Positions 19,609-24,733 of a stretch of DNA of 64,000 nt are shown one piece after another; the stretch's first letter is position 1, and each line of letters begins with the position of its first letter. Below the pieces are notes generated by a model. It was not told the DNA's origin. It was given only the letters and a program-made list of their open reading frames with translations, and ran no database searches. The stretch lies in NCBI RefSeq assembly GCF_031456545.1, contig NZ_JAVDUV010000001.1, forward strand, positions 558,001 to 622,000. Reading direction: 5' to 3'. Origin of the DNA: Agromyces sp. 3263 (GTDB lineage Bacteria > Actinomycetota > Actinomycetes > Actinomycetales > Microbacteriaceae). Made by a program: the position numbers and the translations under genes.

Positions 19609-21183
19609 TCAGGCGACGGTCTCGGCGAAGTACTTCCGACGGTACGCCCGCCAGGTGATGGCCCACCGGTCGGGGTCGTCGAGGTCGTCGTGGTGGGTGT
19701 AGTGCACGCTCTGGCGGTGCGGCGCGGTGCGCACCGTCTCGGCCTCCTCGCGGGCTTCGCGGGCGATCTCGGCGAGCACGCCCGCGTACTCGTCGAGCTC
19801 GGCCATCGAGTAGGACTCCGTCGGCTCGAGCGTGAACGGCTGCGGCACGACGTAGGGGTGGTGGCTCGTCCAGTAGTGCATGCCGAAGTCGCTCGCGCGC
19901 ACGCCGATCTCCTCCGACGTGACGCCGGTGTCCTCGAAGAGCTCCTGCCACGAGTACCGCACCTGCTCGATGCGGCGGCGGCCGACCGCGTACGGCGCGG
20001 ACGCGCCGGGGATCTCGAGCACCTTCTTCATGAGGTAGTTGTTGTTGAGCACCGCGGTCTCGGCGACGGCGCGCAGCCCGGGCGCGCCGAGCGCCATCAG
20101 CCAGGCGTAGGCGCGCACGATGTTCGGGATCACGCCGAAGAACGGCCCGACCGCGCCGATCGACCGCTCATCCTGCTCGCGCACGACGAACCGGTCTCCG
20201 TCGCGGACGACGCGCGGACCCGGGAGGAAGGGCGCGAGCGCCGCGCTCACCGCGTTCGCGCCGGCACCGGGCCCGCCGCAGCCGTGCGGGGTGCCGAACG
20301 TCTTGTGCAGGTTGAAGTGGCAGACGTCGAATCCGGCGTCGCGAGCGCGCGTGATGCCGAGGATGCCGTTCGCGTTGGCCTGGTCGTAGGAGGCGAGCGC
20401 CCCGACCGCGTGCGCGGCATCCACCCACTCGCGGATCGCCGGATTGTAGATGCCCGTGTCCTCGGGGTTCGTCACCATGATGGCGGCGGTGCGCGGCGAG
20501 AGCGCCTGCCGCAGCGCCGCGAGGTCGGGGTAGCCGTCGGCATCCGGGTGGAGGGTGATCACGTCGTAGCCGGCCGCCTTCGCCGCCGCGGCGTTCGAGG
20601 GGTGGCTGAAGATCGTGGTGATGACCTCGCGGCGCTGCGCTCCCTCGCCATTGGCCTCGTGGAACGCGCGGATCATCGCGATGTTCGACCAGATCGCGGC
20701 CGAGCCGCCCTGCGTGTGCAGCGACACCTCGTCCATGCCGGAGATCTCGGCGAGCATGCGCTCGGTGGACCAGACGATCTCGAGCACGCCCTGGGTATCG
20801 GCCGGGTCCTGCAGCGGGTGCATGGCGGTGAGGGCCGGTGTGCCGACGAGCTGGTCATTCACCTTCGGGGCGTACTTCATGGTGCACGTGCCCTGGCCGA
20901 TGTCGACGTTGAGGTCGGCGCCGAGGTTCTCCTGCGACAGGCGCAGGTAGTGCTTCAGGACGCGCATCTGCCCGAGCTCGGGAAGGGCGGGCGGCGCGGC
21001 ACGGCGAAGGCCGGCCGGCAGCGCGGCGACCGCGTCGCCGACGGCCTCACGCACGCCCGGCTCGACGGCCGGCACGAGCACGCCGCGTTCGCCCGGCGTG
21101 GAGAGCTCGAAGATGATCGGCTCGTCCCACCGCGCCTGGTGGAAGCGACGGACGGCGGGCTTGGGGGCGACGGGAAGGCTCAT
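19609..21183 (-). CDS. Divergent glycine dehydrogenase subunit 2-like protein (GcvPB-like)
   Basis: 524 residues of PLP fold type I. The PLP lysine is K294 in NLHKTFGTPHGCGGPG, and TCTMKYAPKVN and PTESYSMAELD are clearly related to GcvPB. Yet motifs that are near-invariant in true GcvPB are changed: GSCTMKYNP has become GTCTMKYAP, DSAHGTNPASA has become IFSHPSNAAAA, and the QPAAGAHGE region reads HTQGGSAAIW. No gcvT, gcvH or lipoyl gene is nearby. The gene overlaps its GcvPA-like partner by 4 nt. It is probably a PLP decarboxylase- or transferase-type enzyme acting on something other than glycine. Confidence 0.8.
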   Translation of the reverse strand: MSLPVAPKPAVRRFHQARWDEPIIFELSTPGERGVLVPAVEPGVREAVGDAVAALPAGLRRAAPPALPELGQMRVLKHYLRLSQENLGADLNVDIGQGTCTMKYAPKVNDQLVGTPALTAMHPLQDPADTQGVLEIVWSTERMLAEISGMDEVSLHTQGGSAAIWSNIAMIRAFHEANGEGAQRREVITTIFSHPSNAAAAKAAGYDVITLHPDADGYPDLAALRQALSPRTAAIMVTNPEDTGIYNPAIREWVDAAHAVGALASYDQANANGILGITRARDAGFDVCHFNLHKTFGTPHGCGGPGAGANAVSAALAPFLPGPRVVRDGDRFVVREQDERSIGAVGPFFGVIPNIVRAYAWLMALGAPGLRAVAETAVLNNNYLMKKVLEIPGASAPYAVGRRRIEQVRYSWQELFEDTGVTSEEIGVRASDFGMHYWTSHHPYVVPQPFTLEPTESYSMAELDEYAGVLAEIAREAREEAETVRTAPHRQSVHYTHHDDLDDPDRWAITWRAYRRKYFAETVA

Positions 21184-22649: not shown

Positions 22650-24733
22650 GGTGCCTCAGTCGGTGGTGTCAGGGTGTCGGACAGGGTGATGAAGGGCGCC
22701 GTGTCGGCGCGCGGCGCGGCGAGCACGGCGGCGCCGAACCGGCCAAGGGTGAGCCGGCCCGTCGTGCGGATGCCGGTGAGCAGGTCCTCGGCGCCCGAGG
22801 GCACGTCGACCGTGAGCTCGTCGCGCCCGTGGTTGAGCACGAACGTGTAGTCCGTCGTCGCGTCGGAACGGGTGATGGCCTCGAGGTTCGAGTCGATGGG
22901 CGACCGAACCGGCAGGCCGGCCGCGGCGAGCACCTCGCGGAACAGGGCGAGCAGGCCCGCCGGCTCGAGTACGGCGCTCAGGTACCAGGCGGCACCCGCG
23001 CCGTCGCCAGAGGGGCGGCGGGTCGCAGCGGCGCGGCCGGCGAGCTCGCCGGTGGCGTACCGGGCGCGGACCTCGGTGCCGTCGTGCACCTCGAGCCACT
23101 CGCTCCAGACGGCGTTGCCGAACCCGACTCCGTCGAGGTCGACGCGCTCCGCCTGCCCGTCGGCGATCGGCCACGGCTCATCCACCTCGACACCGAGCAG
23201 CGACCTGAGCGGCCCGGGTGCGCCGCCGTCGTGCACCGTCTCGGTGGCGTCGACGACGCCCGAGAACGGGCCGACCACGAGCTGGCCGCCCCGGGCGACG
23301 AAGGCGGCGAGCGCGGCCGCCTGCGCGGCATCCGCGACGTAGAGGTTCGGAACGACCACGACGTCGTAGCCGTCGAAGGAGCCGGTGGCGCGCACGGTGT
23401 CGACGGGGTGGCCGAGGGCGTGCAGCGCCGCATGCCAGGCGCGCGCCTGGGCGAGCCAGTTCAGGCGCTGCGAGGGGAGCGACTCCGTCGCCGACGACCC
23501 CCACCAGGAGTCCCAGTCGACGACGAGGGCGACCCGGGAGCGCACGCGGGTGCCTCGAACGGCCGCGAGCCGCTGCAGTTCGGCGCCGAACGCCTTCGTC
23601 TCCTGGAAGCTGCGCGACGCCTCGCCGCGGTGTCCGAGCATGGCCGAGTGGAACTTCTCCTGACCGTACCTCGCCTGCCGCCACTGGAAGAACATGGCGC
23701 CGTCCGAGCCGTGGGCGATGGCCTGAAGGCTGTCGATTCTCATCCGGCCGGGGGCCTTCGGCACATTCACGTCGCGCCAGCTCACGGCGCTCGCGGCCTG
23801 CTCGAGCAGCAGCCACGGCCGCCCGCCCTTGAGCGAGCGCATCAGCCCGTAGTTGAGCGCGGCCGGCACGTGCGCGTCGGGATCGGCGGGGTCGGGGTAG
23901 GCGTCGTCGGTCACGAGGTCCTCGGCGGCAGCGAAGTCCCAGTAGTCGAGGTCGCGCAGGAGGCTCATGAAGTTGGTCGTGACCGCGATGTCGGGGGTGA
24001 CCTCCCGCAGCACGTCGATCTCGAGCTGGAAGAGCTCGAGCAGCGCATCTGACGAGAACCGCTCGAAGTCGAGCAGCTGCGTCGGGTTCACCGGCCCGGT
24101 CGCCCGACGCGGCGCCTCGATGTGCTCCCACGCGGTGTACCGCTGCCCCCACACGTTCACGCCCCACGCGTCGTTCAGCCCGTCGAGGTCGCCGTAGCGC
24201 GCCTCGAGCCAGCGACGGAAGTGGGCGGATGACTCGGGGCACCAGCAGCGCGACACGTGGTCGCCGTACTCGTTGGACACGTGCCAGAGCGCGAGTCCGG
24301 GGTGCTCGCCGTAGCGTTCGGCCATCGCCCGCGTCATCCGTGCCACGTGCTCGCGCCACACGGGTGAGCTCGGGCAGTACGCCTGCCGGGAGCCGAACTC
24401 GAGTCGCCGGCCGTCCTCGTCCCACGGCAGCATTTCGGGGTGGCTGCGGATGAGCCACGACGGCGGCGTGGCGGTCGCGGTCGCGAGGTCGATCCTGACC
24501 CCGGCCTCCCACAGCACGTCCATCACGCGGTCGAGCCAGCCCCAGTCGTAGGCGCCGGGCTGCGGCTCGAGCTGCGGCCAGGAGAAGACCGGCAGGCTCA
24601 CGAGATTCACCCCGGCCTCGCGCATGAGGCGCGCATCCTCGAGCCAGACCTCCTCCGACCACTGGTCGGGGTTGTAGTCGCCGCCGTAGGCGAGGGCGTC
24701 GAGACGGATGCTTCGGGGGATGTCGCCGGCCAC
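22646..24733 (-). CDS. Beta-galactosidase, glycoside hydrolase family 42
   Basis: A cytoplasmic 695-residue retaining glycosidase (no signal peptide). The TIM barrel opens GGDYNPDQWSEEVW; the acid/base is E155 in HVSNEYG and the nucleophile E311 in PWLLLEQAAS. A beta-galactosidase trimerisation domain (about 395-600) follows. C120, C163 and C165 recall the GH42 zinc cluster, which seems incomplete. I chose the GTG at 24733 with AGGAG before it; upstream the frame only crosses the operator region. GH42 enzymes cleave beta-galactosides or alpha-L-arabinopyranosides. It heads the operon with the GcvP-like genes. Confidence 0.92.
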   Translation of the reverse strand: MAGDIPRSIRLDALAYGGDYNPDQWSEEVWLEDARLMREAGVNLVSLPVFSWPQLEPQPGAYDWGWLDRVMDVLWEAGVRIDLATATATPPSWLIRSHPEMLPWDEDGRRLEFGSRQAYCPSSPVWREHVARMTRAMAERYGEHPGLALWHVSNEYGDHVSRCWCPESSAHFRRWLEARYGDLDGLNDAWGVNVWGQRYTAWEHIEAPRRATGPVNPTQLLDFERFSSDALLELFQLEIDVLREVTPDIAVTTNFMSLLRDLDYWDFAAAEDLVTDDAYPDPADPDAHVPAALNYGLMRSLKGGRPWLLLEQAASAVSWRDVNVPKAPGRMRIDSLQAIAHGSDGAMFFQWRQARYGQEKFHSAMLGHRGEASRSFQETKAFGAELQRLAAVRGTRVRSRVALVVDWDSWWGSSATESLPSQRLNWLAQARAWHAALHALGHPVDTVRATGSFDGYDVVVVPNLYVADAAQAAALAAFVARGGQLVVGPFSGVVDATETVHDGGAPGPLRSLLGVEVDEPWPIADGQAERVDLDGVGFGNAVWSEWLEVHDGTEVRARYATGELAGRAAATRRPSGDGAGAAWYLSAVLEPAGLLALFREVLAAAGLPVRSPIDSNLEAITRSDATTDYTFVLNHGRDELTVDVPSGAEDLLTGIRTTGRLTLGRFGAAVLAAPRADTAPFITLSDTLTPPTEAP

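What the first reader, a model, noticed from the sequence alone, without database searches (positions are those of the whole stretch)
19609..24733. GcvP-like enzyme pair with altered active-site motifs inside a GH42 sugar operon
Two proteins related to split glycine dehydrogenase are translationally coupled (4-nt overlaps) behind a cytoplasmic beta-galactosidase and followed by an AcoX-like kinase and an SDR. There is no gcvT, gcvH or lipoylation gene. In the B-like subunit the PLP Lys motif is kept (NLHKTFGTPHG) but DSAHGTNPASA has become IFSHPSNAAAA; in the A-like subunit TPYQPEISQG has become AGEPYEDHGR. This argues for a different substrate or reaction, fed by sugar breakdown, possibly on an amino- or keto-sugar derivative. 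I know of no described pathway with this gene set.
Basis: partly seen in the sequence, partly recalled or inferred. Interest (0 to 1): 0.8.

Follow-up and report, generated by a model that had tools for sequence, protein, structure and literature searches.

The report
Repurposed glycine-cleavage enzyme in glycoside operon
Some soil bacteria carry an altered form of the enzyme that normally breaks down glycine, without its usual partner genes beside it and together with a putative kinase and sugar-removing enzymes, which suggests an undescribed pathway for eating sugar-decorated amino acids, possibly those of collagen.

Summary
GH42, GcvPA-like, GcvPB-like, AcoX-like and SDR genes form one operon (window 17713-24733, minus strand), and both stated motif changes are real. 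The pair is not a glycine cleavage system: in trees of each subunit it falls, with its close relatives and a sister group, on one side of a fully supported branch, opposite ordinary GcvP. gcvH lies near 19 of 20 ordinary GcvPB genes but 0 of 89 of these; AcoX near 0 of 20 but 83 of 89. The genome's only GcvH sits beside an ordinary GcvP elsewhere.

GH42 is accessory; the core is AcoX + PA + PB, usually with SDR. In the window's group the core is tied to a GH63 alpha-glycosidase: 8 of 8 carriers in a 394-genome sample have one of two GH63 types, 0 of the other 386 have either. One type is YgjK-like; YgjK was crystallised with Glc-alpha1,2-Gal, the disaccharide of collagen hydroxylysine. In the sister group the core often sits with amino-acid importers or enzymes.

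Best reading: glycosidases strip a galactosylated amino acid, possibly hydroxylysine, and AcoX, the GcvP-like PLP enzyme and SDR break down the aglycone. Substrate and chemistry are inferred.

The parts
17713..18471 (-). SDR oxidoreductase (252 aa), last gene of the operon
   Evidence: PF13561/PF00106; in 68 of 80 relatives' loci, 52 of 53 with full flanks
18461..19606 (-). AcoX-like protein (381 aa), NAD/diacylglycerol/sphingosine-kinase superfamily; putative kinase
19609..21183 (-). GcvPB-like PLP subunit (524 aa): PLP Lys, Asp and His positions kept; SAHGTN replaced by FSHPSNA, the canonical TIYFP-type stretch by TSHHP
   Evidence: NCBIfam GcvPB 542 bits (cut-off 441), PF21478, PF02347; nearest solved 1WYT chain B; tree; motifs
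21180..22649 (-). GcvPA-like subunit (489 aa): TPYQPEISQG stretch replaced by AGEPYEDHGR; REQHIRREKATSNICT by RTSFAHREEGKEWVGT
   Evidence: NCBIfam GcvPA 453 bits (cut-off 364), PF02347; nearest solved 1WYT chain A; tree; motifs
22646..24733 (-). GH42 beta-galactosidase (695 aa), accessory, first gene of the operon
   Evidence: PF02449/PF08532/PF08533; nearest solved chains are beta-galactosidases; in 62 of 80 relatives' loci, 48 of 53 with full flanks
24873..25529 (+). GntR/FCD regulator, divergent from the operon
   Evidence: PF00392 + PF07729; homologue within 10 kb in 59 of 80 relatives; other GntR/FCD regulators in the Chloroflexota loci L060 and L072
25579..27246 (-). GH63 (MGH1-like) alpha-glycosidase; no signal peptide seen by eye, presumably cytoplasmic
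   Evidence: PF22422; solved relatives GH63 mannosylglycerate and glucosylglycerate hydrolases and, more weakly, YgjK; this type in 6 of 394 class genomes at E <= 1e-40, all carriers of the module
27243..28151 (-). ABC importer permease
   Evidence: ORF, identity read from the sequence, no Pfam run on it; homologues in 61 of 80 relatives' loci
28148..29125 (-). ABC importer permease (start approximate)
   Evidence: ORF, identity read from the sequence, no Pfam run on it; homologues in 61 of 80 relatives' loci
29134..30432 (-). ABC importer solute-binding lipoprotein, sugar type
   Evidence: ORF, identity read from the sequence; homologue in 24 of 80 loci, many loci not reaching this far; SBP_bac_1 proteins in L084, L180, L184

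Best explanation
The operon takes up and degrades a galactosylated amino acid, most likely the collagen unit Glc-alpha1,2-Gal-beta-O-5-hydroxylysine or fragments of it. The ABC importer brings it in, the GH63 enzyme removes the outer alpha-glucose, and GH42 removes the beta-galactose. The free amino aglycone is then handled by the core AcoX + GcvP-like PA/PB + SDR. I propose that AcoX phosphorylates the hydroxyl and that the PA/PB heterodimer, a P-protein that has lost its H-protein role, uses PLP on the amino group for an elimination or decarboxylation, with SDR as the redox step. Shown here: gene content, conservation, separation from glycine cleavage, kept PLP residues, GH63 coupling. Inferred: direction of flow, amino aglycone, hydroxylysine, kinase activity, reaction type.
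Against: No substrate or activity is shown. Collagenase M9 does not go with the module: 1 of 12 carriers (own genome, which has none, included), 5 of 48 non-carriers. No aldehyde dehydrogenase is in the window operon, which the human-like route would need next. Most Chloroflexota loci lack both glycosidases. The window's own GH63 is only distantly like YgjK (E about 1e-13), so its sugar may differ. YgjK's natural substrate is not settled (PMC9061262 passage). AcoX occurs in several genomes with no gcvP-like gene seen close by. PA and PB still pass NCBI's GcvPA/GcvPB cut-offs. Some sister-group operons look like hydroxyproline or other amino-acid routes.
Confidence: 0.45

Rival explanations
1. 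The core is an amino-acid decarboxylase system with a broad or other substrate: PA/PB decarboxylate an amino acid to an amine, which is oxidised later, and the galactoside in group I carries some other amino aglycone (hydroxyproline, serine, an amino alcohol) rather than hydroxylysine.
For: P-protein chemistry is decarboxylation; PB kept the Lys, Asp and His; sister-group operons hold primary-amine oxidase or omega-aminotransferase plus succinate-semialdehyde dehydrogenase and acyl-CoA synthetases, the enzymes that would follow an amine; several hold DAO/BFD oxidoreductases and DHDPS-family genes as in hydroxyproline routes (route recalled).
Against: No amine oxidase or aminotransferase is in the window operon; AcoX has no obvious role; GH63 coupling points to alpha-1,2-glucosyl-galactose in one lineage.
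Confidence: 0.3
2. PA/PB are a working glycine decarboxylase that borrows the GcvH encoded on contig 2 and uses glycine made from the imported compound.
For: Both pass NCBIfam equivalog cut-offs for GcvPA and GcvPB; the genome has one GcvH.
Against: The genome already has a full-length GcvP beside that GcvH; 0 of 89 relatives' loci have gcvH near; stretches near-universal in ordinary GcvP are replaced: AHGTN in 0 of 89 (29 of 30 ordinary), TP[YV] in 1 of 89 (29 of 30); trees separate them.
Confidence: 0.06
3. The core acts on a sugar-derived compound (amino- or keto-sugar); the GHs feed the sugar, not the aglycone, into it.
For: ABC importer and GHs in group I; GH63 coupling.
Against: The same core with no GH seen sits with amino-acid importers and amino-acid enzymes in the sister group and in L185, though some sister-group loci also have sugar-type importers; no sugar kinase, isomerase or aldolase is among the window genes scanned.
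Confidence: 0.12
4. AcoX is not a kinase but a binding or regulatory partner of carbon-carbon-cleaving enzymes (its name comes from acetoin clusters, recalled), and PA/PB pass a carbanion to an unknown acceptor.
Against: The GGDGT motif of the kinase superfamily is invariant in 24 of 24 aligned group I AcoX.
Confidence: 0.1

Closest known systems
Glycine decarboxylase P-protein, split form GcvPA/GcvPB (Thermus thermophilus 1WYT)
   Same: Same family and split; PB E 9e-82 and PA E 6e-62 to the 1WYT chains; PLP Lys, Asp, His kept
   Different: No GcvH/GcvT near; near-universal GcvP stretches replaced; separate branch in both subunit trees; linked to AcoX and SDR
AcoX / 'ATP-NAD kinase family' protein
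   Same: Family signature incl. GGDGT and GRGNQQ
   Different: Here tied to a PLP enzyme pair; acetoin context (recalled) not seen; activity unknown
E. coli YgjK (GH63) and mannosylglycerate/glucosylglycerate hydrolases
   Same: YgjK_N + MGH1-like domains in Streptomyces-type loci, 35-37% identity to YgjK; the window's enzyme shows the catalytic domain only
   Different: Coupled to the GcvP-like core; Streptomyces form carries a TAT-like signal (by eye); window form distant from YgjK
Human hydroxylysine catabolism: PGGHG glucosidase (GH65), HYKK kinase, PHYKPL phospho-lyase
   Same: Proposed same order: deglucosylation, degalactosylation, kinase, PLP enzyme
   Different: Other families throughout (GH63 not GH65; AcoX not APH kinase; GcvP-like not class III aminotransferase). 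HYKK/PHYKPL recalled; PGGHG from PMC8626586 passages
Bacterial glyco-amino-acid use, fucosyl-GlcNAc-asparagine (PMC6960285)
   Same: By its title, a bacterial catabolic pathway for a sugar-decorated amino acid
   Different: Different sugars and amino acid; seen only in a search listing

Membership tests
Glycine cleavage system P-protein | GDC-P family and split subunits | tested here: met
   PF02347, NCBIfam GcvPA 453/364 and GcvPB 542/441 bits
Glycine cleavage system P-protein | PLP lysine and PLP-site residues | tested here: met
   H194, D267, K294 of PB invariant in 21 of 21 aligned PB, four canonical ones included
Glycine cleavage system P-protein | SAHGTN (PB) and TPYQ..SQG (PA) stretches | tested here: not met
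   AHGTN 0 of 80 and 0 of 9, against 29 of 30 ordinary; TP[YV] 1 of 80, 0 of 9, 29 of 30
Glycine cleavage system P-protein | gcvH/gcvT encoded with it | tested here: not met
   gcvH near 0 of 89 (19 of 20 ordinary), gcvT 0 of 89 (16 of 20); 0 of 53 group I loci with full flanks; the one genomic GcvH sits with another GcvP. Use in trans is not excluded
Glycine cleavage system P-protein | Position inside the GcvP tree | tested here: not met
   unrooted quick trees, 31 canonical split sequences, 9 full-length in the PB tree only
Glycine cleavage system P-protein | Glycine decarboxylation with lipoyl-H | not testable with these tools
   needs assay
AcoX / NAD-kinase superfamily | PF01513 + PF20143 and GGDGT | tested here: met
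AcoX / NAD-kinase superfamily | Acetoin cluster context (recalled) | tested here: not met
   no acetoin dehydrogenase-type gene among the ten window genes scanned or the annotated features
GH63 YgjK type | YgjK_N + MGH1-like domains | tested here: not met
   window enzyme gives PF22422 and weak Trehalase/GH63 hits, no YgjK_N; met in L066 and L180
Hydroxylysine catabolism (HYKK + PHYKPL) | APH-type kinase and class III PLP lyase homologues | tested here: not met
   no APH or Aminotran_3 hit for AcoX, PA or PB at E <= 0.001: analogy at most
Hydroxylysine catabolism (HYKK + PHYKPL) | Hydroxylysine as substrate | not testable with these tools
   needs assay

The most novel reading that the evidence does not exclude
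A bacterial pathway for the collagen unit glucosyl-galactosyl-hydroxylysine in which a glycine decarboxylase P-protein, freed from its lipoyl partner, has become the PLP enzyme for hydroxylysine, fed by AcoX as the unassigned kinase. The sister group uses the same AcoX + PA + PB core on other amino acids.
Probability: 0.35. Interest if true: 0.85.

Novelty: new variant of a known kind. Interest (0 to 1): 0.7.

Why it matters
Automatic annotation calls these proteins glycine dehydrogenase, so the genomes that carry them are credited with a glycine-decarboxylating enzyme that the evidence here argues against. If the reading holds, a classic lipoyl-dependent enzyme was turned into an H-free amino-acid enzyme, the AcoX family gains a testable role, and soil bacteria gain a genetic candidate for use of glycosylated amino acids such as those of collagen.

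Tried and rejected
Collagenase M9 as a co-occurring marker: no association. Literature for AcoX with glycine dehydrogenase, for split GcvP without GcvH and for bacterial hydroxylysine operons: nothing on point in the listings (open-licence library only). The P-protein structure paper is not held. The D-amino-acid gene cluster next door (13403-17564) as part of the pathway: rejected, near 4 of 80 loci only, all Agromyces. GH42 as the defining partner: rejected, missing near 18 of 80 (5 of 53 with full flanks). Acetoin context for AcoX: none seen. Class III aminotransferases of the own genome: ten matches, uninformative. Promoter/terminator scan: nothing. De novo clustering of neighbour ORFs was confused by antisense ORFs and served only to pick genes for Pfam.

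Rows dropped or limited: the PA tree used even-numbered group I loci of suitable length only (37 plus the window); the PB tree used all 80 group I loci, L118 and the window; the position counts used chosen representatives, and L058 PA, broken in that assembly, was left out of the PA count. Short contigs (e.g. L010, L050, L085) were kept in the 80, so neighbour counts there are lower bounds; one search repeats them for the 53 loci with 9 kb on both sides. The threshold could hide more distant carriers. A family named nowhere in the fold lists is not thereby excluded.
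Full report
WHAT IS THERE. On the minus strand, window 17713-24733, five genes run GH42, PA-like, PB-like, AcoX-like, SDR, with ATGA overlaps at GH42/PA and PA/PB, a 2-nt gap to AcoX and an 11-nt overlap to SDR. A GntR/FCD regulator (24873-25529, +) diverges from the operon, and a GH63 (MGH1-like) glycosidase with an ABC importer follows at 25579-30432. The genome (4.07 Mb; its nearest named relatives are Agromyces) has an ordinary full-length GcvP with the only GcvH on another contig, and one AcoX.

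IT IS NOT A GLYCINE CLEAVAGE SYSTEM. I fetched the 80 best PB relatives from public genomes (65-91% identity; Actinomycetota including Acidimicrobiia MAGs, and Chloroflexota), and more distant ones from plasmids (42-47%: Gemmobacter, Sphingomonas, two Rhodococcus, Paracoccus, Antarctobacter, Roseicitreum, the haloarchaeon Natronosalvus) and from unnamed Actinomycetota. In a PB tree of 131 rows, 82 rows of group I (80 loci, L118, window) and 9 of group II lie together on one side of a branch of length 1.7 with support 100, against 31 ordinary split GcvPB and 9 full-length GcvP. A PA tree of 78 rows (38 group I, 9 group II, 31 ordinary split) gives the same split, support 100. Both are quick, unrooted trees with SH-aLRT support only and with warnings about long branches, some of them where the groups meet.

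The neighbourhoods agree. Around 20 ordinary GcvPB genes of the phylum (about 9 kb each side, four of them cut by contig ends), gcvH is found near 19, gcvT near 16 and AcoX near 0. Around group I it is 0 of 80, 0 of 80 and 75 of 80; around group II 0 of 9, 0 of 9 and 8 of 9. Many group I contigs are short; among the 53 with 9 kb on both sides, gcvH is 0, gcvT 0, AcoX 53, SDR 52, GH42 48 and an MGH1-like GH 44. The five loci without AcoX are three that end within 300 bases of PB, and L053 and L070, which have 10 kb there. The ninth group II member, Natronosalvus, has an AcoX about 54 kb away on the same plasmid. PA and PB are adjacent in 80 of 80; AcoX follows PB directly in 67 of the 74 loci where both are found at the stricter threshold, and SDR follows AcoX in 63 of 67.

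THE ACTIVE SITE HAS CHANGED BUT KEEPS ITS PLP RESIDUES. Lys, Asp and His are invariant in 21 of 21 aligned PB proteins, four ordinary ones included (their roles by analogy with fold-type I enzymes, recalled). Between nine ordinary and 17 group I PB sequences, 37 positions switch from one near-fixed residue (85% or more) to another, and 32 in PA, one a deletion. By my column matching, the deleted PA Tyr is human GLDC Y164 and the PB aromatic is W897; PMC7259800 labels both, with Y161 and T894, as active site (passages seen). PB Arg409 is new and fixed in the group I and II sequences compared.

WHAT IT TRAVELS WITH. GH42 is found at 62 of 80 group I cores. In the Anaerolineae locus L062 a GH2 enzyme follows the core, beside an MGH1-like GH63 and ABC permeases. 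GH63 is the stricter partner. In one even sample of 394 Actinomycetes genomes, 12 have the PB family at E <= 1e-125: 8 group I and 4 group II (grouping by identity and neighbours). In what is, by its size and listed handles, the same sample, a search with the window's GH63 finds 6 genomes (E <= 1e-40) and with the Streptomyces-type GH63 two others (E <= 1e-60); together they are exactly the 8 group I genomes, so 8 of 8 against 0 of 386, and each GH63 lies within about 9 kb of PB. The two types replace each other. The 8 genomes fall in four families, so they are not fully independent, and the threshold could hide distant carriers.

WHAT X IS. The core needs an amine for PLP. Where it occurs without glycosidases seen it often sits with amino-acid genes: APC permeases with a primary-amine oxidase (L106) or an ArgE-like deacylase (L108); in L176 an SBP_bac_3 amino-acid importer, class III aminotransferase, succinate-semialdehyde dehydrogenase, CoA-transferase and FAD/BFD oxidoreductase, with DAO in L177 and homologues of the aminotransferase and dehydrogenase in L177-L179; in L185 an SBP_bac_3 importer, aminotransferase, ALDH and DAO. 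Two sister-group loci also have sugar-type importers (L110, L111). In Homoserinimonas L031 the GH42 operon is preceded by an Opp/Dpp-type importer. So X in group I is likely an amino acid, and hydroxylysine is the known one that carries this disaccharide.

HOW IT MIGHT WORK. AcoX belongs to the NAD/diacylglycerol/sphingosine kinase superfamily (moderate Z, with periplasmic-binding folds tied), with GGDGT invariant in 24 of 24. A kinase plus a PLP enzyme is also how humans degrade hydroxylysine (recalled), with unrelated proteins. AcoX overlapping a HisC/CobD-like PLP enzyme gene in Peptoclostridium and lying behind EpmC in Pseudoalteromonas NC201 fit but are single cases; in Aeromonas the neighbours scanned were not EpmC. 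I commit to kinase-then-PLP chemistry at about 0.3 and to hydroxylysine as X at about 0.4; an amino aglycone in general at about 0.7; not a glycine cleavage enzyme at about 0.95.

AGAINST. M9 collagenase is not associated. No aldehyde dehydrogenase is in the window operon. The window's GH63 is distant from YgjK. Most Chloroflexota members lack glycosidases near, though L084 and L058 have an MFS carrier near. Nothing has been assayed.

NOVELTY. Searches of an open-licence paper library found no description of this gene set or of a bacterial hydroxylysine-glycoside operon in their listings; subscription papers are mostly not held, so this is weak evidence of absence. The proteins are members of a known fold family with a changed role: a new variant of a known kind, with a pathway that would be new if confirmed.

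Noticed in passing
window 17630-17685 and 30625-30680: Two 56-bp palindromes with the same 11-bp arms and different inner sequence (arm at up to 1 mismatch: 6 in window, 0.68 expected; first copy folds with z -5.4) lie just outside the two ends of the whole importer-glycosidase-core cluster; five such elements with exact arms in the genome, all 56 bp.
   Followed up: partly
window 13403-17564: A neighbouring plus-strand cluster, D-serine-dehydratase/BhcC-like enzyme, amidohydrolase, IclR-like regulator (read from sequence), RidA, sits next to the core in 4 of 80 loci, all Agromyces; looks like a separate D-amino-acid pathway.
   Followed up: partly
L151 7418-9110: In Pseudoalteromonas NC201 an AcoX gene follows directly behind EpmC, the EF-P hydroxylase.
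   Followed up: partly
L147 8995-11071: In Peptoclostridium acidaminophilum AcoX overlaps the gene of a HisC/CobD-like PLP enzyme that reaches neither curated cut-off.
   Followed up: no
L176-L179, L185, L186: Other AcoX + PA + PB operons with amino-acid catabolic genes: undescribed pathways of the sister group and of an intermediate group in Microbacteriaceae.
   Followed up: partly
L072 8361-10355: An Anaerolineales core locus is followed by a corrinoid protein and an MttB-type methyltransferase.
   Followed up: no
L058 8592-10004: The PA gene reads as two ORFs in this Chloroflexota MAG; a real break or an assembly error.
   Followed up: no
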